Origin: Synergistaceae bacterium
Lineage (GTDB): Bacteria; Synergistota; Synergistia; Synergistales; Aminobacteriaceae
Assembly: GCA_017405525.1 (NCBI GenBank)
Contig: JAFRAH010000043.1
Location: forward strand, 1 to 34,829
DNA length: 34,829 nt
Direction: 5' to 3'
Within the stretch, counting starts at the first letter, position 1, and every line of letters starts with the position of its first letter. The notes beneath the pieces are model-generated. The model had not been told where the DNA came from, ran no database searches, and saw only the letters and a list, made by a program, of their open reading frames with translations. The position numbers and the translations under genes were made by a program. Shown piece after piece: positions 15,383-30,318 of the stretch.

Positions 15383-16507
15383 ATGTTAGGCGACGACATC
15401 AAGAAACTCGGCTTCGGACTGATGAGGCTTCCCAGAGTTGAGGGCAAAGAGGACGTTATCGACATTGAGCAGGTCAAGCAGATGGTTGATGAGTTCCTTG
15501 CGGCAGGGTTCACGTACTTCGACACAGCTTGGGCTTATCCCGGAAGTGAGGACGCAATACGTCAGGCACTAGTTGAGCGTTATCCGAGAGAGAAATTCCA
15601 GCTCGCAACGAAAAATGCCGCGTGGATAGGCTGCAAGACCAAAGAGGACGCAATAGCACAGTACACCACCTCACTGAAGCAGTCGGGGGCAGGATACTTT
15701 GACTTCTACCTTCTCCACAACTTGGGGGACTCACGCACAAAGCCGTTCGATGACTTCGGGCTGTGGGACTACTTCATGAACGAGAAGGCCGCCGGGAAAA
15801 TCAAGCACCTAGGTTTCTCGTTCCACTCAACGCCGGAACAGCTCGACGAAATTCTCAATGCCCACCCTGAAGCAGAGTTCGTACAGCTACAGATCAACTA
15901 TGGCGACTGGGAGAACCCCGCGATACAGTCGAGAGCCTGCTATGAGGTTGCCCGCAAGCACAACAAGCCCGTCATCATCATGGAGCCGGTCAAGGGCGGT
16001 AACCTCGCAACTCCTCCTGAGAGCGTGGCGAAAATCCTCAAGGCCGCCGAACCTGAGTCATCATGCGCATCATGGGCAGTGAGATTCGCCGCTGACCTTG
16101 AGGGAGTGATTACTGTCCTGTCGGGAATGTCGAACATTGAGCAGATGAGGGACAACCTGAGCTACATGAAGGGGTTCACCCGCCTTACGCCGTCAGAGAA
16201 GAAGGTCATTGAGGAGGCTCGCATTGCCCTCGCCAAAGTCCCGGTTATCCCCTGCACAACCTGCAACTACTGCGCAAAGGTCTGCCCCATGGACATAGGA
16301 ATATCGGCCTCGTTCACGTCCCTGAACATGTACACTCTCTACGGGAATCTTGAGAGCGCGAAGAACAACGAGAAGTGGAACGTTGAGGGAATGGGCCACA
16401 AACATGCAAGCGAGTGCGTGAAGTGTGGTGCTTGTGAGCGGGCATGTCCCCAGCACATAAAGATACGTGATGAGCTCGTGAGGGTTTCCGAAACTTTGGG
16501 AGTGTGA
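15383..16507 (+). CDS. Aldo/keto reductase fused to a 4Fe-4S ferredoxin domain
   Basis: A 374-residue oxidoreductase. The first 270 residues form the aldo/keto reductase barrel (KKLGFGLMRLP, TYFDTAWAYPGSE, FDFYLLHN, LGFSFHSTPEQLD, MEPVKGG). The tail carries two cysteine clusters, CTTCNYCAKVCP near residue 293 and CVKCGACERACP near 352, each able to hold part of a 4Fe-4S centre. This architecture is common in anaerobes, where electrons probably pass from ferredoxin rather than only from NADPH. The substrate is unknown. The catalytic tyrosine is seen in AWAYPGSE. The ATG at 15383 has GAGGGGG 10 bases upstream. It is monocistronic and ends with a strong terminator. Confidence 0.92.
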   Translation: MLGDDIKKLGFGLMRLPRVEGKEDVIDIEQVKQMVDEFLAAGFTYFDTAWAYPGSEDAIRQALVERYPREKFQLATKNAAWIGCKTKEDAIAQYTTSLKQSGAGYFDFYLLHNLGDSRTKPFDDFGLWDYFMNEKAAGKIKHLGFSFHSTPEQLDEILNAHPEAEFVQLQINYGDWENPAIQSRACYEVARKHNKPVIIMEPVKGGNLATPPESVAKILKAAEPESSCASWAVRFAADLEGVITVLSGMSNIEQMRDNLSYMKGFTRLTPSEKKVIEEARIALAKVPVIPCTTCNYCAKVCPMDIGISASFTSLNMYTLYGNLESAKNNEKWNVEGMGHKHASECVKCGACERACPQHIKIRDELVRVSETLGV

Positions 16508-16518
16508 GAGAAGTTTTT

Positions 16519-16552
16519 TCCCCTTGTCCTGAGAGGCAGGGGGATTTTTTTT
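16519..16552 (+). terminator. Intrinsic terminator after the aldo/keto reductase gene
   Basis: TCCCCTTG (16519-16526) pairs with CAGGGGGA (16537-16544), extended by two inner G-C pairs after a bulge, followed by eight T residues. Confidence 0.9.
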
Positions 16553-16558
16553 GACCGT

Positions 16559-17623
16559 TTACTTTGTGCCGTAACCCCACTTAATGCCCCAGCGGTAATA
16601 TTTCTCAAGGTCAGCATGTCCGTAGAAGAAGTCCATCAATTTTTCGACACTCAAAGCCTCGTCATTCACATTCTCGAACATGGCCGCCGCGCACATTCTC
16701 TGCTTCGAGTCATACTCCTTCATGTGTATGAATATGTCGGGGTTTGCCGGACTGCTCACGGTGATTACTCCGTCAGCTCCCTTCCAGTCAGCCGCGCCGT
16801 TGTACATGAACGTGAACACAAGCACCCTGCTTATTACCGCTACCTTGTCCCCGTTGATGTGTAGAGTTCGCCCGTTCCCTGATGCCTCATCGTACGGGTC
16901 AAGCGATATGTAGGGGGGATTGTCCTTGTCGCCTGTGTCATTGCCGAGAGACTGGAGCATTCCCTTCGTGCCGTCAGTGAGTGCATAGAGGCAGCCCAAG
17001 TCTATATTTGGCGTTACGTCCCTGTTCCACCTGAGATTTACGGAGATCTCGCCAAGACCTGAGCCCGTACCCTTGAGGCGTATCTTCTGCCACTTCCCTA
17101 ACTCTTCAGGTTCAGGTTTCTCCTCGCCGCCGTAGAACTTCAGGAGCTCGCTCAACCCCCCGTTGAACCCAGACGCAACCGCCGCAATCCTCCACGTGTC
17201 ATTTTTCCTGTATATCTCAACGCTGATTATTGCCTTCTCGCTGCTGAAGTCTTGGCCTGTGAGCCTGAGTTTTACTGCGTCCCCAAGCGTGAAGGTGTGT
17301 GAGGTTATCCCGCCCATTGTCCCGGTGCCGTCAATGCTGGCCGTGAATACTAACTTCTGTATCGAGGCAGGAAGGCGTGAGAGGTTCAGCGTGAACTTTG
17401 CCCCGCCATCAGTGGGGGAATATGACAGCTCACCGTTGGGGCTCTTGGTCTGGTTGTAGAACATCATGTACCTGTCATCGCTGAGCTGGTTATTGCCGTC
17501 GACACCGAAACAGCAGAAATCATAGACATCACTGCCCGATATAGTCATAACAGCCTCAATGCTGCCCGAAACGTCAACGTACTGTGCTATATCCCCCCTG
17601 AAGCCCCGCTGTATCTCCGTCAT
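16559..17623 (-). CDS. TerD-domain stress protein, TerA-like two-domain form
   Basis: A 354-residue protein with an N-terminal TerD-type beta-sandwich (about 1-165; segments [12 protein letters not shown] and [15 protein letters not shown], and a closing [23 protein letters not shown]). The C-terminal domain (about 185-354) has the TerA features [33 protein letters not shown] and [12 protein letters not shown]. TerD-family proteins bind calcium through acidic loops and are linked to tellurite, phage and envelope stress responses, with biochemistry still unclear. The start is ATG at 17623, overlapping the TerD stop as ATGA, so the pair is translationally coupled. No terC or other ter genes are nearby. 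Confidence 0.88.
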
Positions 17624-18198
17624 ACGTTCACCCCGAAATTCACGCAAAGAGCCTTGAGCCCTCCCTTTGTGCCCGTACCTATGGCGTTGAACTTCCAGTC
17701 TGAACCGCTCCTGTAGAGTTCCCCGACAGTTACGGCCGTCTCAACCGAGAAATCTTCAGCAAGGTCATAGCGGATTAATTCTTTGCCGCTTACGTCGTCC
17801 TTTATGTGTATGTAGGCGTTCGAGACCTGCCCGAAATTCTGCCTCCGTGTATCAGCGTCATATATCGTTACGGTGAAGGTTATCCTGCTGATGTCCTGCG
17901 GTATCCTCGTGAGGTCAACGCGTATAACCTCGTCGTCCCCATCACCTGCACCTGTGAGGTTGTCGCCGGTGTGCTCAACTGCTCCTGATGAGTGCTTGAG
18001 GTTGTGGTAGAAGATGAAGTCAGCATCTGAGGTTACCCTGCCGTTCGGGCCAAGAAGGAATGCCGAAGCGTCAAGGTCAAAGTCATAGCCGCCGTCATAT
18101 TTCTTCACGTCCCAGCCAAGTCCTACAAGAATTTTCGTGAGGTTGGGATTGCCTTTAGTGAGCTCAACTTTCTGGCCCTTGAAGAGATTTATAGCCAT
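17620..18198 (-). CDS. TerD-family calcium-binding stress protein
   Basis: A 192-residue TerD/TerE/TerZ-like protein. It shows the family start [20 protein letters not shown], the acidic calcium-binding loops ([12 protein letters not shown] and the [12 protein letters not shown] segment), the [14 protein letters not shown] region and the ending [22 protein letters not shown]. It probably acts in the cytoplasm or at the membrane as part of a stress-response module with the TerA-like partner. The ATG at 18198 has AGGAGG 8 bases upstream. An extended -10 box lies about 40 bases before the start, so this gene heads the two-gene operon. Confidence 0.93.
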
Positions 18199-18238
18199 GA
18201 TGAAAGCCTCCTGAATGCGTTAAATTTTGGATTAGGCT

Positions 18239-18247
18239 ATTATAGCA
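18239..18247 (-). promoter_or_regulatory. Extended -10 promoter (TGCTATAAT) for the TerD/TerA operon
   Basis: The minus strand reads TGCTATAAT, 41 bases before the terD-like start codon and immediately beyond the polymerase stop codon. It is identical to the box at 2586, 30357 (minus) and 30368. Confidence 0.65.
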
Positions 18248-18249
18248 AA

Positions 18250-19757
18250 TTAAAGGCGAGAATATTTTATGCGCTCCCTGTCATACTCAATCATCTTCAT
18301 CACGTAGATGTAAAGGAAATATGTGTTTGTCCATGCATATGGATCAGAAAGAGAAGTTCCAGCTATTGCACCCACAAATCCAGAAAGTAATAAACAAAAT
18401 AGAGCAAGAGCAAGTTCATTATCGCCTCTGTGCATGTATAAACGTTTCATCATCATGTAGCACATTCGCAGAAGAAAAAATGTGCCTATCAGGCCGTAAC
18501 GCGTCATCATCATCCCATAAGAAATGTCAGGTGTATTTGCTTGGTCTATATACCCTGTCTCCTTGTCCCTAAGGCCGAACCTGAAATCATAGTTTCTGTG
18601 CCAGAACTTAGCATCACTTGTCATAGGCAGCCCCATCAACAGTTCAACCGGGCTTGTTATCAGGTATGCTCCTCTTTCAATGACCCAGCCTATACGGTAC
18701 ATGAGTGTCAAGCCATTTGATACATCGCTTCTTGCTTGGTTGAAGTCCCCTCTCATCAATGCAGATATGTCATTGGCCGTAGAATTATTACCCTTTGCTA
18801 AACGCTCACTGAACGCGTTCCCAAAAACTAGGTATATCACGAGAAGTACAGCAGCAGCTTTAAACATCTTTGTGAATGAACCCTTAAAGAACATCACTAA
18901 CAGTATACATAGCAATGACGTTGCAATAGCAGTTCTGTATAGTGTGCAAAACCGACCTGCAAGAAATACGATTGGGGATATGTACCTTAACTGTTTAGGT
19001 ACAAGTTTCTTGCAGAATATGCTTATTGGAATCAAGACTGTCATGAAAGCAGGAGTAAACAAAAAACGATATACCCCTCCAATGGCTTCTACTCCTCCTT
19101 CTTCTTCTTGGAACTTTGACATCGGAAGTATCGCTTGACCTGTGAAGCATTGGATGAGATACAGAATTGAAGCTGCGAAAGTAAGTATAAATATTATCCT
19201 GAACAACTTATCACATTCATGTTTTTTTAAGGGAACGAATACGAAAATGCTCATTAGCATCATGAATTTTATCCCCTCATTAATCACAGATGCAAATGAA
19301 AACTCTACCCCCCCCCCCATACAATGCAGGTAAACAACATTGACACAACAAAAAACATGGACAACACAAACACAGAACGCAGAATTTTGTCGTTTCGTAC
19401 GCCACGTATAATGTTATTGACGTTGAAAATGATGAAGATGAATAAAGCAACGAAAGGCACAACTCTTGTCTTCCAAGGGGAAAGAAACCCAAAACCCTTC
19501 GTACACAATGCCAGAAACAAAAAGGCTGAATACATATGCCTTTTCTGGATTGTGAAAAAGGCAAGCATTACGAGCATAAGAACATAAATTAAAATAAAAA
19601 ATGCATTCATACTTAATACCACAAAGCTATTTGTTATATTATTGAGTAAAATTATGAAATTATTATAACAAAGTAAAATGAAAATAGGTATATATAACAA
19701 ACGTAGCATTTTATCTTCGTTGCTGACTGTTATATCGTTCATATCAGTCATACCCAT
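18250..19757 (-). CDS. Polysaccharide polymerase/O-antigen ligase-like membrane protein, phase-variable, frameshifted at a G11 tract
   Basis: About 500 residues when both halves are joined, with roughly ten or more membrane helices. A larger loop region (RDKETGYIDQANTPDISYGM) before the last helices is in the style of Wzy/O-antigen-ligase proteins, which join oligosaccharide units. The 5' half (19757 to the tract) ends at TAG 19305-19307 just after the G tract; the 3' half continues in another frame from the tract to 18250. With 9 or 12 G residues the halves fuse; 11 are present. The best start is ATG at 19757, with GGGAGGAG 10 bases upstream; an ATG at 19709 is another option. DNA here is clearly more AT-rich than its neighbours, suggesting transfer. 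The start overlaps cobS on the other strand. Confidence 0.7.
19308..19318 (-). repeat. Homopolymer G11 tract inside the polymerase gene, contingency locus
   Basis: Eleven consecutive G residues on the minus strand (C on the plus strand). The upstream frame reads TGG GGG GGG GGG TAG; the downstream protein continues in a different frame. Elsewhere in the window the longest G or C runs I noticed, apart from the other two tracts, are six or seven. Confidence 0.9.
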
Positions 19758-20454
19758 ACCCTCAAGACTCCTCCCTAAATGGACACCCGATAACCTCCGG
19801 CACTTCCCCGTTATGCTCCCGGTTGCTGGCTTGGTATTCGGGGCGTTCTGGCTCATCTTGTGGCAGGTGCTCTCATCACTCCCGGCCGTGTCCCCAATCC
19901 TCCGGGGCTTCATGATGATGCTCCTCACTCTTGCACTCACTGGAGGGCTTCACCTTGACGGCCTCATGGACACGTGTGATGCAATATTCTCACACCGCGA
20001 CCGTGATACCCGCCTGAAGATACTCTCAGACACTCACACAGGAAGTTTCGCGGTCATTTGCTGTGTCGTTGTCCTCATGGCGAAAACACTCCTCTTCTCC
20101 GAGCTCCTCACACATGGCGTTCACCCCTTAACCCTCTCGTTCATTCCTGTATATTCGCGTCTGGGAATGGCATTGCTGCTCACTAACCTCCCCTTTGCGA
20201 AACCAAGCGGCCTCGCTGCAACATTGGGAGCTTCACGCAGTAAGCGCGACAATATCCCCCTCGTCATGATTCTTCTTGCCCTCTCGTTCTTGAGCACGGG
20301 CATCATTACGGCCATGATGATTTTGTGCCTTGTCCTTCACGTGATAATATGCGTTAAGATTTTCGGGGGAATAACCGGCGACCTTCTTGGTGCATTCGTT
20401 GAGGTCTCCGAAGTCATTATGCTTTCCGGGATGGTGATAGTGAGTTGCATCTGA
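19678..20454 (+). CDS. cobS: Adenosylcobinamide-GDP ribazoletransferase
   Basis: A 258-residue membrane enzyme joining adenosylcobinamide-GDP and alpha-ribazole in the last steps of cobalamin synthesis. Family marks are SFISVIPIPS near residue 20, the aspartate-rich segment GGLHLDGLMDTCDAIFSH near residues 93-110, and KILSDTHTGSFAV just after. Six or seven hydrophobic helices follow. The start is uncertain: ATG 19678 has no ribosome site, but a TTGAGT/TATAAC promoter-like pair (19642-19669) sits just before it, which would give an almost leaderless mRNA; TTG 19720 is the alternative. Its 5' end overlaps the start of the leftward polymerase gene. It overlaps the next gene by 10 bases. Confidence 0.9.
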   Translation: MKIGIYNKRSILSSLLTVISFISVIPIPSRLLPKWTPDNLRHFPVMLPVAGLVFGAFWLILWQVLSSLPAVSPILRGFMMMLLTLALTGGLHLDGLMDTCDAIFSHRDRDTRLKILSDTHTGSFAVICCVVVLMAKTLLFSELLTHGVHPLTLSFIPVYSRLGMALLLTNLPFAKPSGLAATLGASRSKRDNIPLVMILLALSFLSTGIITAMMILCLVLHVIICVKIFGGITGDLLGAFVEVSEVIMLSGMVIVSCI

Positions 20455-25296: not shown

Positions 25297-25329
25297 CAGC
25301 CTTCGCAGGGCAACGAGGGCTGTTTTTTT
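25297..25329 (+). terminator. Intrinsic terminator after the glycine-rich protein gene
   Basis: CAGCCTT (25297-25303) pairs with AGGGCTG (25316-25322) with one wobble, followed by seven T residues that overlap the end of the convergent sugar-transferase gene. Confidence 0.85.
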
Positions 25330-26779
25330 ATGGCCGCTTGCTTGTCAGAATGTGTGAAGATATGATGAAGAATGTTTTTACCAATATTACGAAGTCGAGC
25401 CAGACGGACCAGTTCCGTATGTAGTAGAGGTTCATTTCAGCGCGTATGTTCTTGTCGTTGTCCTTTCGTTCGTTTATCTGCCAGAAACCAGTTATCCCCG
25501 GCTTCACCGTGCAGATCTTACGTGCAGTCTCCTCACCGTAAGCCCTTCTCAGATCCGTAATGACCAGCGGCATAGGACCTACAAGGCTCATCTCACCTTT
25601 GAGGACGTTGAAGAGCTGTGGGAGCTCGTCAACATAGAACCTTCGGAGGAGCTTTCCCGTACGAGTCAACCCTTTCCGGCCTGTGTAGCTCGTCCTGAAC
25701 TTGTACATCGTGAACGTGTCGGTGCCAAGCCCGGCCCGCTCAAGAGGCGACAATACATGTCCCCCGTCATCGTGCTTTATCTTGAGTGCCGCCCATGCCA
25801 TGAACGGCCAGAGAAATACCACAGCAACAGCAGCACCTACATAGTCCATGATATTCTTCACTGTCCTGTTCATGGGACGCATCAAGCCCTGGGACGCGGC
25901 AATAACCGGCATACCCTCAACGTCCCGGATTGATGACGAAAACGTCGTGAGCATGTACATGTCCGGGATATAGTGCACCTGCCTGACGTGGAACTCTACA
26001 ATGTCGAGAATGTGGGCGAGAAGATTCCGTGAGGCAGTGGAGATTGCTACGGCGGCCTCGTCAATTTCGTATTCAGTGTAGATTGTGATGAAGTCCTCAA
26101 GTTTTCCCAGAACGGGGAAGCCTGCAATGATCTTTCCCTGTTTTTCCGGGTCATCATCAAGGAAGCCTATAACCCTGCAGGCCGTGAAAGGGTGCGAGAC
26201 TATTTTTTCGGCGAATATTTCCCCGGTCTTTCCTGCTCCGAGTATTATGATGTTGGTTTTGAGGATGCCAAGCGCAAAAAGTATTCTCCTGAAGACGTAC
26301 CGGGCGGCAATGCACAAAGGGATGAAGATTATTGTTCCGGCGGCAAGAATGAACCGTGAGAGCTCAAAGTTTTGGGAGTAGAGATAGAGCACAGTAACAG
26401 GCAGTATCAGGGCGGCAGACTTCAGGATTGCCTTGATCTCGTCCCAGAGAATCCAGTTCCTGAAGCTGTAGAGTGAGCTGAAGTAGAACACAGCTAACAT
26501 TGTCCCCGTGAAGAACGCCTTGACCTCGAACGTGAAGCCTGAAGGTGATTTTCCGGCGAACCACAGAAATATGACCAGCCTGAAGCTGAGCCAGTAGACA
26601 GCCGAGTCTATTACAGCCTGAAAGAATGCCAGTAAAGCCCTGAAAAAATTTTTGTGATTAGACATCTCTTCAATGCGCACATGTTGAAGCTCTGCGTTGC
26701 CTGTACCTTTCTTCATGATTTTCTGTAAGTATACCATGAAAATTTTTCGGATGCGTTCAGGGAGGAGTTCCCCCCTCAT
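25328..26779 (-). CDS. Polyprenyl-phosphate sugar-1-phosphate transferase (initiating glycosyltransferase)
   Basis: A 483-residue membrane enzyme that loads the first sugar phosphate on undecaprenyl phosphate. It has four N-terminal helices (about 45-160), a Rossmann CoA-binding-like domain (IILGAGKTGEIFAEKI, GFLDDDPEKQG) and a catalytic C-terminal domain. The catalytic domain shows NIMDYVGAAVAV, MYKFRT, FYVDELPQLFNVLKGEMSLVGPMPL and VKPGITGFWQINER. The usual VGPRP reads VGPMP and the stretch after KFRT is short, so the enzyme is divergent; the key Asp-Glu of DELPQ is kept. The start ATG 26779 overlaps the pyruvyl-transferase stop as ATGA and shows no Shine-Dalgarno, so translation is probably coupled. 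It is last in the leftward glycan operon. Confidence 0.9.
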   Translation of the reverse strand: MRGELLPERIRKIFMVYLQKIMKKGTGNAELQHVRIEEMSNHKNFFRALLAFFQAVIDSAVYWLSFRLVIFLWFAGKSPSGFTFEVKAFFTGTMLAVFYFSSLYSFRNWILWDEIKAILKSAALILPVTVLYLYSQNFELSRFILAAGTIIFIPLCIAARYVFRRILFALGILKTNIIILGAGKTGEIFAEKIVSHPFTACRVIGFLDDDPEKQGKIIAGFPVLGKLEDFITIYTEYEIDEAAVAISTASRNLLAHILDIVEFHVRQVHYIPDMYMLTTFSSSIRDVEGMPVIAASQGLMRPMNRTVKNIMDYVGAAVAVVFLWPFMAWAALKIKHDDGGHVLSPLERAGLGTDTFTMYKFRTSYTGRKGLTRTGKLLRRFYVDELPQLFNVLKGEMSLVGPMPLVITDLRRAYGEETARKICTVKPGITGFWQINERKDNDKNIRAEMNLYYIRNWSVWLDFVILVKTFFIISSHILTSKRP

Positions 26780-27922
26780 TTAAGGCACTGTGAGATGAAA
26801 TCCCTGTACTTCCTGCCAGTTTCTCTGTAGGTGAAGAAATACCTCCTGTTCTCCCTGAGTGTTCCTGTTATGCTTTCGGGGTCAAAGGTCTTTTTGCCGC
26901 CTGACTGAAGCTGAAGCATCCTTCCCGAATAAAAATCCAAGCCTCCGCAGTCCCGGATGAAACCGATGATTTTTCCTGTTGATGGGTCAGTGTAGTCAAG
27001 TATGAAGTTGTTGCCGTTAAGGATTGTCTGGAAGAAAACTGAATGATACCTCATGCCGATACATGCCGACGCGTTCATGTAGCAGCTGTAAAGCTCGTGA
27101 AGGTTCTGCGGCCGGTGAACTACCTTATACCCCCCCCCCCGTATGCATATTTACGTCTAGGACAAGCCTTGCGAGATAGTACCTGTCATCCCCGCCGACA
27201 AAGAATGTGTGCATAGGTACGAGCCTGACATCCCCATATTCCCGCGAGAGGCAGAACACCAAGCTCCTCAAGTCGTCATCAGAGACAGCAATATTCTTCC
27301 CGTACTGTCCGCCGGGGTTGCCCCTGAAGTTCACAGCACAGTATTCCGGGCCATTGTATGACTCACTGACAGCCTCCTTGTAGTTCCACGCAGATATTGC
27401 CGCAGGGTCTCCGAGTACCTGAAAGCTGAACCCGTCCCCGTAAAGTTCACGTGCTGTATTCCTTGAGGTCTCATCCCTGAAGGAGATTGCAGAGGACAGG
27501 ACTAATATGTCCCGAACAACCCCTATATGTCTCCTGCTGTTCAGAGGGCCTATTCCGCAGCCCATAACTACGGCAGGAATACCGAGCTTTTCTGCAAGCC
27601 TGAAACAACGCCTGACTATGTAGAGCTCCTCAAGATCCATCAGCGGGCCTCCTCCCATTATCACAAGATCAGAAGAGGCTATATTTTCCTCAAGCTCCTG
27701 CCTGTCCTTAACGCTGAAAATTTCGAGCCTTGCTTTTGGTGCTGACCTCCTGAAAATTTCGCGCTCCTCGAAAAATGTCCGCTCAGTGTAGAATGGGAAG
27801 AGACTTCCTACCTTCACCGTCAAGTTCCCGTCAAGACCATCAAGAACGCTCAATATTCCGTCAAGTATCGCACGGTCTCCCATCGTCTCAGTGCCATACC
27901 ACCCTGTTATGCTCACTCTCAT
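26776..27922 (-). CDS. Polysaccharide pyruvyl transferase family protein, phase-variable, frameshifted at a G11 tract
   Basis: About 382 residues if joined, the normal family size. The N-terminal half has ITGWYGTETMGDRAILDGI and VIMGGGPLMD, with FRDETSRNTARELYG in the middle. The C-terminal half has QNLHELYSCYMNASACIGMR followed by YHSVFFQTILNGNNFILDY, the family's signature. The family puts pyruvate ketals on sugars of surface polymers. From ATG 27922 (GGAGG 9 bases upstream) translation reaches the G tract and stops at TAA 27125-27127; the C-terminal half is one frame off. Ten or 13 G residues would join them; 11 are present. It lies between the radical SAM gene and the initiating transferase gene. 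Confidence 0.88.
27130..27140 (-). repeat. Homopolymer G11 tract inside the pyruvyl-transferase gene, contingency locus
   Basis: Eleven G residues on the minus strand interrupt the coding sequence after ATG CAT AC. The in-frame reading gives Gly-Gly-Gly-Val-stop; removal of one G gives Gly-Gly-Gly-Tyr-Lys-Val and the rest of the enzyme. Confidence 0.9.
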
Positions 27923-29054: not shown

Positions 29055-30318
29055 TTAGTGTGTTCCTGAAATTTCCCGGTAAATCCCCATCAATGTGGCG
29101 AATATCTCTTCACGGTCATGTGTCCTTGATGCGTGGGATATTTCGTTGCGGGAGAATGTCCCGGCAAGCTCGTCATCACTGAATATTTTGTCCACATAGT
29201 ACGGGATCATGTAGGGCTCATCGGCAGGGTAGGTGAAGCCTTCAGTGCCGTGGGTCATCATGTTCTTCACGCCCCCAACGTCCGATGAGATGCAGGGAAC
29301 GCCAAGAATCATTGCCTCGCCGAGTGAGTTCGGGGAGTTCTCGATTGTCGACGGCAAAATGAACACGTGGGACTTCCTGAACCTCTCGCACATTCTTTCC
29401 TCGTCAAGGTAGCCCGTGAACGTGATGTAGTTCTCCAGGTTGTTCTTCCTGATTATGTCCGTGAGGTATTTCCTGTAGCTGGTCTGCTTGATGTGCTGGA
29501 TTAACGTTTTGGGTATCGGGCTCGTTCCTGTGGTGTAGACGTGAACGTCCGGGTATCTCCTGATGATTTCGGGTAGTGCCTGAAGGAAAATGTGGAACCC
29601 CTTGATTGGGTATGATGACTGGCTGATGAAGATTGAGTGCCTCTCGCATGACTGGGCTGACCATTTCGGGCTCTCGTAGAACGTATCCCTGAGCATCTCG
29701 TTGCAGTGGAAGTACCTAACTCCGGGGTTGATGGACTTCACGCAGGCCTCATCCCAGTCTGTCCTGCCGGTTATGTTTCCTGCCCTCCTGATTGCTTCGG
29801 CCTCAGAAATTCCGCGCCGCTGAAAATCCTTCTGTCCTCTTCTTATCCCCCCCCCCCCTTAGTACATCTCTGAAGGTCTTTGTGCAGAGAGTGCGTATTG
29901 GCACATTCAATGAATAGTGGTATGAATAAAATTGTACCAGCCCCTGAATGTGAATGACTACCCTTCCCAAGCATCCCAGTTCCTCGCAGGCCCTCACCAT
30001 CGCCAAGGTGTGGGAGTGTTCAGTGCCGAATATGTGAACTACATCAGGCTTGAACGACCTCAATATTCCCGTGAACTCGTCGTACTGTTTTTGCTCGACC
30101 CTGTCTATTCGTTTCTGGCTGTAGCTCCGAAACGTGATATTGCCATCCGTGAACGTGAGCTCCGAATTTTGCGGGAAGAGATACATCACCTCAAGCCCGG
30201 AAGTCTTCTTCATCCTCCAGCAGATTCCGTTGATCCAGCTCTCAGGTTTGCCGTGCTTCAGTCCGAGCTTCTCCTTGACCTCCTCCATAATGCCATTACA
30301 GAGCAGCAATACTCTCAT
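29055..30318 (-). CDS. Family-4 glycosyltransferase (GT-B fold), phase-variable, frameshifted at a G12 tract
   Basis: About 421 residues if joined. The N-terminal half (from ATG 30318, with GAGGAGGT upstream) has the acceptor-binding GT-B features (PDVVHIFGTEHSHTLAMVRA, GRVVIHIQGL). The second half carries GRTDWDEACVKSINPGVRYF, FISQSSYPIKGFHIFL and the donor-site EX7E motif IENSPNSLGEAMILG followed by PCISSDVGGV. Such enzymes transfer a sugar from a nucleotide donor with retention. The first half runs through the G tract to a TGA at 29803-29805; the second continues in another frame. Eleven or 14 G residues would fuse them; 12 are present. It is first in the leftward glycan operon. Confidence 0.9.
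29847..29858 (-). repeat. Homopolymer G12 tract inside the family-4 glycosyltransferase gene, contingency locus
   Basis: Twelve G residues on the minus strand lie in the coding sequence after CTA A. Loss of one G joins the frame to ATA AGA AGA and 35 codons later to the conserved second domain. Confidence 0.9.

What the first reader, a model, noticed from the sequence alone, without database searches (positions are those of the whole stretch)
19290..19340. G11 tract splitting a polysaccharide polymerase-like gene
The upstream half ends Trp-Gly-Gly-Gly-stop right at the tract, while the downstream half with the remaining membrane helices continues in another frame. Nine or 12 G residues would fuse them. 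Loss of a polymerase or ligase would change chain length or remove long glycan chains, making this the most drastic of the four switches. With 11 G, an ATG immediately before the tract lines up with the downstream half, so a truncated protein could in theory be made.
Basis: partly seen in the sequence, partly recalled or inferred. Interest (0 to 1): 0.76.

Follow-up and report, generated by a model that had tools for sequence, protein, structure and literature searches.

The report
Phase-variable glycan polymerase-like gene
In a gut/rumen-type bacterium (family Synergistaceae), a run of 11 Gs breaks a membrane-protein gene that probably links sugar units on the cell surface; it is one of 23 such slippery G runs in this genome, and across the genus these runs often carry an unexplained short sequence signature on one side.

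Summary
A G11 tract (minus strand, window 19308-19318) splits a 486-codon frame: 134 codons before it, then W-G-G-G-stop; the rest is open in another frame. Read through, it is one membrane protein with about 10-12 helices and one large hydrophilic loop near the C-terminus, as in Wzy polymerases and WaaL ligases. No family or PDB sequence matches it, and none of 185 Synergistota genomes holds a homologue, so 'Wzy' rests on topology and context. The gene is an AT-rich islet (38% GC against 51%) between genes that are direct neighbours in congeners. Phase variation is well supported: the genome has 23 G tracts of 9 or more, bimodal in length, mostly in glycan genes, and orthologous tracts in congeners differ in length in every phase. 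Switching of this particular tract was not seen. Poly-G phase variation is a known mechanism; I found no report for this phylum. Following it up showed something less expected: across the genus, G tracts have a motif (TNNGYARWW, core TACGTAAWT) about 17 nt 5' of the G strand, in 65 of 157 tracts against 1.9 in shuffles, confirmed on held-out genomes and absent at outgroup tracts. The tract in this finding lacks it.

The parts
19308..19318 (-). G11 tract (C11 on +), putative slipped-strand switch
   Evidence: one of 23 G tracts of 9 or more in the genome
19305..19709 (-). 5' part of the split gene, from the likely ATG (MLRLLYIP...) to the stop TAG at the tract; 4 predicted membrane helices
18250..19307 (-). 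3' part of the split gene, in another frame: remaining helices, large hydrophilic loop (fused residues about 317-400), then YGLIG and last helices
   Evidence: collinear but insignificant alignment to a Wzy_C profile
16508..19677 (.). lineage-specific islet (two TerD-like genes 16559-18198 plus the split gene) between aldo-keto reductase 15383-16507 and cobS 19678-20454, which adjoin each other in about 10 congeners
   Evidence: GC of the split gene 38% against 51% for the window
27130..27140 (-). second G11 tract, splitting a polysaccharide pyruvyl transferase gene (26776-27922)
29847..29858 (-). third tract (G12), splitting a GT4-type glycosyltransferase gene (29055-30318)
25328..26779 (-). 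initiating sugar-phosphate transferase (Bac_transf + CoA_binding_3), start enzyme of Wzy-type pathways

Best explanation
A contingency locus: slipped-strand errors at the G tract during replication change its length, so that in a minority of cells the two halves come into one frame and a full polytopic protein is made. The protein is most likely a Wzy-type polymerase (less likely a WaaL-type ligase or another membrane glycan enzyme) acquired horizontally. ON cells would polymerise or re-link lipid-linked repeat units; OFF cells, like the assembled consensus, would carry unpolymerised or otherwise linked glycan, which alters phage, protozoan and immune recognition. Shown: the tract, the frames, the single-protein layout, the genome- and genus-wide tract repertoire in glycan genes, length differences at orthologous tracts. 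Inferred: switching at this tract, the polymerase activity, the phenotype.
For: Frames and tract. Fused protein: about 11 hydrophobic peaks, large loop, no other stop in 486 codons. 23 G tracts in the genome with bimodal run length; most sit in or at frames of glycosyltransferases, pyruvyl transferases, LicD, acyltransferase, CDP-alcohol transferase and the like. Genus-wide tracts, few outside the genus. The same tract position with different lengths and phases in orthologues: permease 9-18 G in about 18 species; LicD, CDP-alcohol transferase, and a TPP enzyme at 92% DNA identity with G11 and G10. Two congeners carry G tracts in or before genes that do match Wzy_C. Wzz, Wzx and initiating transferase are present. 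Low GC and patchy distribution fit wzy genes; Wzy proteins are known for high sequence variability (PMC12502699).
Against: No profile or structure-sequence match; Wzy_C profile alignment collinear but not significant; a post hoc Wzy_C-like residue pattern also appears in 2.5% of shuffles; AlphaFold of the downstream half alone is uninformative (pLDDT 45). The gene stands alone, about 6 kb from the nearest glycan genes. Only one genome of the species is held, so no length polymorphism was seen for this tract itself.
Confidence: 0.72

Rival explanations
1. Decayed gene: a horizontally acquired gene now fixed in the broken state, the tract being a slippage relic.
For: Lineage-specific, AT-rich islet; out of frame in the assembly.
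Against: No other stop or frameshift in 486 codons; the break lies exactly at the tract; 22 other G tracts of 9 or more in the genome, several of them in frame, and long-lived tracts at orthologous places in congeners.
Confidence: 0.12
2. Assembly or base-calling error in the homopolymer; the gene is really intact.
For: The genome is a draft assembly (43 contigs); homopolymers are error-prone.
Against: An 11-base run is spanned by ordinary short reads; 23 tracts with all three phases in the genome; tract position conserved across independent assemblies. Even then the tract stays hypermutable.
Confidence: 0.06
3. Two separate genes, the second starting at the ATG that overlaps the tract.
For: An ATG in the tract is in frame with the downstream half at this length.
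Against: No Shine-Dalgarno sequence; neither half alone resembles a family; together they give one standard polytopic layout with the loop in the usual place.
Confidence: 0.04
4. Transcriptional slippage or programmed frameshift at the tract makes some full-length protein from every allele, so the locus is a dosage device and not an on/off switch.
For: Long homopolymers can cause polymerase slippage (general knowledge; recoding and phase variation compared in PMC3711429).
Against: Tract lengths differ between orthologues, so the DNA itself changes; in promoter-type loci the C tract lies in the -35/-10 spacer, where recoding cannot act.
Confidence: 0.06

Closest known systems
Poly-G/C phase-variable genes of Campylobacter and other bacteria (PMC8355987; PMC4965091 and PMC2823697, abstracts)
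   Same: G/C tracts in coding frames of surface-glycan genes, a minority intergenic, dozens per genome, length changes toggle the frame
   Different: Different phylum (Synergistota); genome of 51% GC; many congener tracts (not this one) carry a conserved 5' motif. The Campylobacter review has no occurrence of the word 'flanking', and my literature search found no report of such a motif
Wzy O-antigen/capsule polymerases and Wzy_C/WaaL ligases (PF04932)
   Same: Length, polytopic layout with one large loop, low GC, patchy distribution, presence of Wzx, Wzz and initiating transferase in the genome
   Different: No significant match to PF04932 or any other family; stands outside a glycan cluster
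Reversible loss of wzy in Salmonella Typhimurium DT8/DT30 (PMC12074656)
   Same: Reversible switching of an O-antigen polymerase gene, with recovery after phage predation as the proposed benefit
   Different: There by excision at direct repeats and reacquisition; here by a homopolymer inside the gene

Membership tests
Poly-G slipped-strand contingency locus | Long G/C homopolymer inside an open frame, far beyond chance | tested here: met
Poly-G slipped-strand contingency locus | Change of tract length joins or separates the two halves | tested here: met
   frames
Poly-G slipped-strand contingency locus | Tract length varies within the species at this gene | not testable with these tools
   one genome per species held; no reads
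Poly-G slipped-strand contingency locus | Orthologous tracts of the same repertoire vary in length between relatives | tested here: met
Poly-G slipped-strand contingency locus | Repertoire concentrated in surface and glycan genes | tested here: met
   mixed but similar in congeners
Wzy polymerase / PF04932 | Profile match | tested here: not met
Wzy polymerase / PF04932 | 10-14 membrane helices with one large periplasmic loop | tested here: met
   hydropathy only
Wzy polymerase / PF04932 | Wzy-type fold | tested here: inconclusive
   single-sequence model of the downstream half, pLDDT 45
Wzy polymerase / PF04932 | Partner enzymes of the pathway (initiating transferase, Wzx, Wzz) in the genome | tested here: met
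Wzy polymerase / PF04932 | Polymerises lipid-linked repeat units | not testable with these tools
   needs an assay

The most novel reading that the evidence does not exclude
In this genus, G tracts are not merely slippery DNA: a genus-specific factor recognises a short motif (core TACGTAAWT, about 17 nt 5' of the G strand) and installs, extends or destabilises the tract next to it, so that phase-variable switches are written into unrelated genes and promoters by a dedicated system. The tract of this finding, in a foreign gene, lacks a clear copy of the motif and would be a degenerate or independently acquired case.
Probability: 0.2. Interest if true: 0.9.

Novelty: new variant of a known kind. 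Interest (0 to 1): 0.57.

Why it matters
It extends large-scale poly-G phase variation of surface glycans to a genus of mostly uncultured Synergistaceae, where such genes would ordinarily be annotated as frameshifted pseudogenes. If the 5' motif is functional, it would be a cis element attached to contingency loci, and would make testable whether bacteria place and tune their hypermutable tracts actively or only keep those that arise by chance.

Tried and rejected
Homologue searches for the fused protein: genus and order, phylum (the best weak hit, L157, is a TctA-type transporter by its sequence), GTDB species genomes, plasmids, viral contigs (downstream half), PDB sequences: nothing. Wzy_C-like residue pattern: not discriminating. 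Inverted-repeat or hairpin reading of the 5' motif: only a weak excess over shuffles (45 against 33.6 +/- 5.0 for stems of 4 or more; 13 against 8.3 +/- 2.7 for 5 or more). Cassette-insertion reading of tract plus flanks: suggested by one pair with rewritten flanks (L211/L226), but other close sets keep their flanks (L211-4394/L226-3807/L227).

Full report
WHAT IS THERE. The window's minus strand carries G11 at 19308-19318. One frame runs into the tract and stops directly after it (...TCIVWGGG*), the other is open from within the tract for 356 codons. From the likely start at 19709 the gene would be 486 codons long, 134 of them before the junction.

IS IT MORE THAN CHANCE. In 181 kb of this genome (362 kb counting both strands) G runs decline geometrically (3485 of three, 873 of four, 215 of five, 49 of six, 7 of seven, none of eight) and then reappear: 1 of nine and 22 of ten to fifteen (the stretches were fetched around the tracts, so the absolute density is inflated, but the gap at eight is not). 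A search of the whole genome finds 23 tracts. A generous Markov estimate gives about 1.5 runs of 11 or more per genome; 15 are present.

ORGANISM. Rho from the window is 71-85% identical to proteins of Synergistales assemblies, most of them Synergistaceae (goat reticulum, 'uncultured Fretibacterium', several unnamed Synergistaceae), so the source is probably a little-known Synergistaceae bacterium; that it is a gut or rumen organism is inferred from those relatives. The genome has 2.17 Mb in 43 contigs.

THE GENE. Read through, it has about eleven hydrophobic peaks, one hydrophilic stretch of about 80 residues near the C-terminus and no other interruption. It matches nothing in Pfam or NCBIfam, no PDB chain, and no protein in 185 Synergistota genomes. 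A profile built from 29 Wzy_C proteins of the order aligns collinearly (84-316 and 402-426) but without significance. Its GC is 38% (5' part 32%) in a window of 51%. In about ten congeners the aldo-keto reductase and cobS, which flank it here together with two TerD-like genes (named from sequence, not by a profile search), are direct neighbours. So it is probably an acquired islet. Low GC, patchy distribution and lack of sequence similarity are what wzy genes show (Wzy variability: PMC12502699; low GC from general knowledge). The genome has an initiating transferase in this window, Wzz, Wzx-type flippases and one separate Wzy_C protein, which is the better ligase candidate. I therefore call the gene Wzy-like, not Wzy.

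THE REPERTOIRE. The tracts of this genome interrupt or adjoin GT2, GT4, GT10, GT11 and TOD1/MUCI70-type transferases, polysaccharide pyruvyl transferases, LicD, CDP-alcohol transferase, acyltransferases, a sulfatase-type protein, an amino-acid permease and surface proteins. Among tracts with at least 75 open codons on both sides, in own and five congener genomes, 20 are in frame and 30 out of frame; all three of this window are out of frame. 27 of 28 genomes of the genus examined have tracts of ten or more, up to 58; other genera of the order mostly have 0-6, with a maximum of 18. In two congeners G tracts are attached to genes that do match Wzy_C (one of the two below the curated cut-off).

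DIRECT EVIDENCE OF LENGTH CHANGE. A permease orthologue has a G tract at the same place in about 18 of 30 species, with 9, 10, 11, 12, 13, 16 and 18 Gs, and none in about 12. A TPP enzyme of two species at 92% DNA identity has G11 and G10. LicD and CDP-alcohol transferase have G11/G13 and G10/G11 at corresponding positions. This shows tract-length evolution in the genus, not switching in this gene.

PROMOTER TRACTS. In 11 of 157 tracts TTGAC lies beside the C strand of the tract, and in most of them a TATAAT-like box lies on its other side, so the tract is the -35/-10 spacer: likely transcriptional switches, of a type known from other bacteria.

THE UNEXPECTED PART. The flanks of the tracts are AT-rich, and on the 5' side of the G strand they contain a motif. 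TACGTA occurs 31 times in the 20 nt upstream of 116 tracts, against 0.2 expected from distal sequence; expectation maximisation gives a motif of about TNCGTAAWT with its start peaking 17 nt before the tract, log-likelihood 251 against 56 for a control stretch. The degenerate form T[ACG][ACG]G[TC]A[AG][AT][AT] is found upstream in 65 of 157 tracts, downstream in 8, and 1.9 +/- 1.4 times in shuffles that keep the local composition (orthologous tracts are counted separately). In two genomes not used to define it: 20 of 39 upstream, 1 of 39 downstream, 1.1% background (p = 2.5e-26); at 20 outgroup tracts: none (the outgroup tracts lie in more GC-rich DNA). A whole-phylum pattern search confirms that CGTA-N(7-15)-G10 is nearly confined to this genus, though the genus also has most of the tracts. 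In coding genes the motif occurs in two codon phases; the third would create a stop. In the permease orthologues the valine codon beside the tract is GTA in 11 of 13, against 32% elsewhere (phylogeny not corrected). It is found 5' of the G strand also in 5 of 11 promoter tracts, where the promoter reads the other strand (there the -10 box overlaps it), which points to a role at the DNA level. It is not a clear hairpin. I cannot tell whether it is recognised by a protein, promotes slippage, marks how tracts arise, or results from a mutational process. None of the three tracts of the window has a strict copy, so it concerns the repertoire, not this locus.

HOW IT MOST LIKELY WORKS. Slipped-strand mispairing changes the tract length, a minority of cells makes the full protein, and the surface glycan differs between cells. 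The steps shown are the tract, the frames, the repertoire and interspecies length change; switching and activity are inferred. Nearest parallels are Campylobacter-type poly-G phase variation (PMC8355987) and, for the effect, reversible wzy loss in Salmonella, proposed to aid recovery from phage predation (PMC12074656).

NOVELTY. The mechanism is known. Literature searches for Synergistetes or Fretibacterium with phase variation or homopolymeric tracts found no description, within the limits of an open-access library. The motif makes the repertoire a new variant of a known kind.

Noticed in passing
157 G tracts in own genome and seven congeners (window, L031-L048, L170-L249, L283-L322): Conserved motif (core TACGTAAWT) about 17 nt 5' of the G strand, genus-restricted, validated on held-out genomes; function unknown.
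   Followed up: partly
window 27130-27140 and 29847-29858 (-): Two further G tracts (G11, G12) split a polysaccharide pyruvyl transferase and a GT4 glycosyltransferase; both are out of frame here.
   Followed up: partly
L047 position 12208 (-) and L210 position 1501 (+): 178 bp next to a promoter-spacer tract are 100% identical between two species whose cobS proteins share only 69%, while the other side is unrelated: perhaps a mobile promoter cassette or recent transfer.
   Followed up: no
L211 near 1510 (-) and L226 near 1527 (-): At 92% DNA identity the roughly 20-27 nt around the tract were rewritten, including indels, next to a conserved TACGTA.
   Followed up: partly
L220 position 1493 (-): A G tract lies at the end of an EcoRI-type adenine methyltransferase frame in a congener: a possible phase-variable methylome.
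   Followed up: no
L040, L047, L180, L191, L205, L210, L213, L215, L234, L284, L298: C tracts beside TTGAC, mostly with a TATAAT-like box on the other side: promoter-spacer switches; the L040 tract lies between an era-like gene and another GTPase gene.
   Followed up: partly
tract-bearing ORFs in congeners and own genome: Three congener ORFs match the leukocidin/hemolysin family profile and one own ORF matches MACPF weakly; not examined.
   Followed up: no
window 16559-18198: Two TerD-like genes lie with the split gene in the islet that is absent between the flanking genes of congeners.
   Followed up: no
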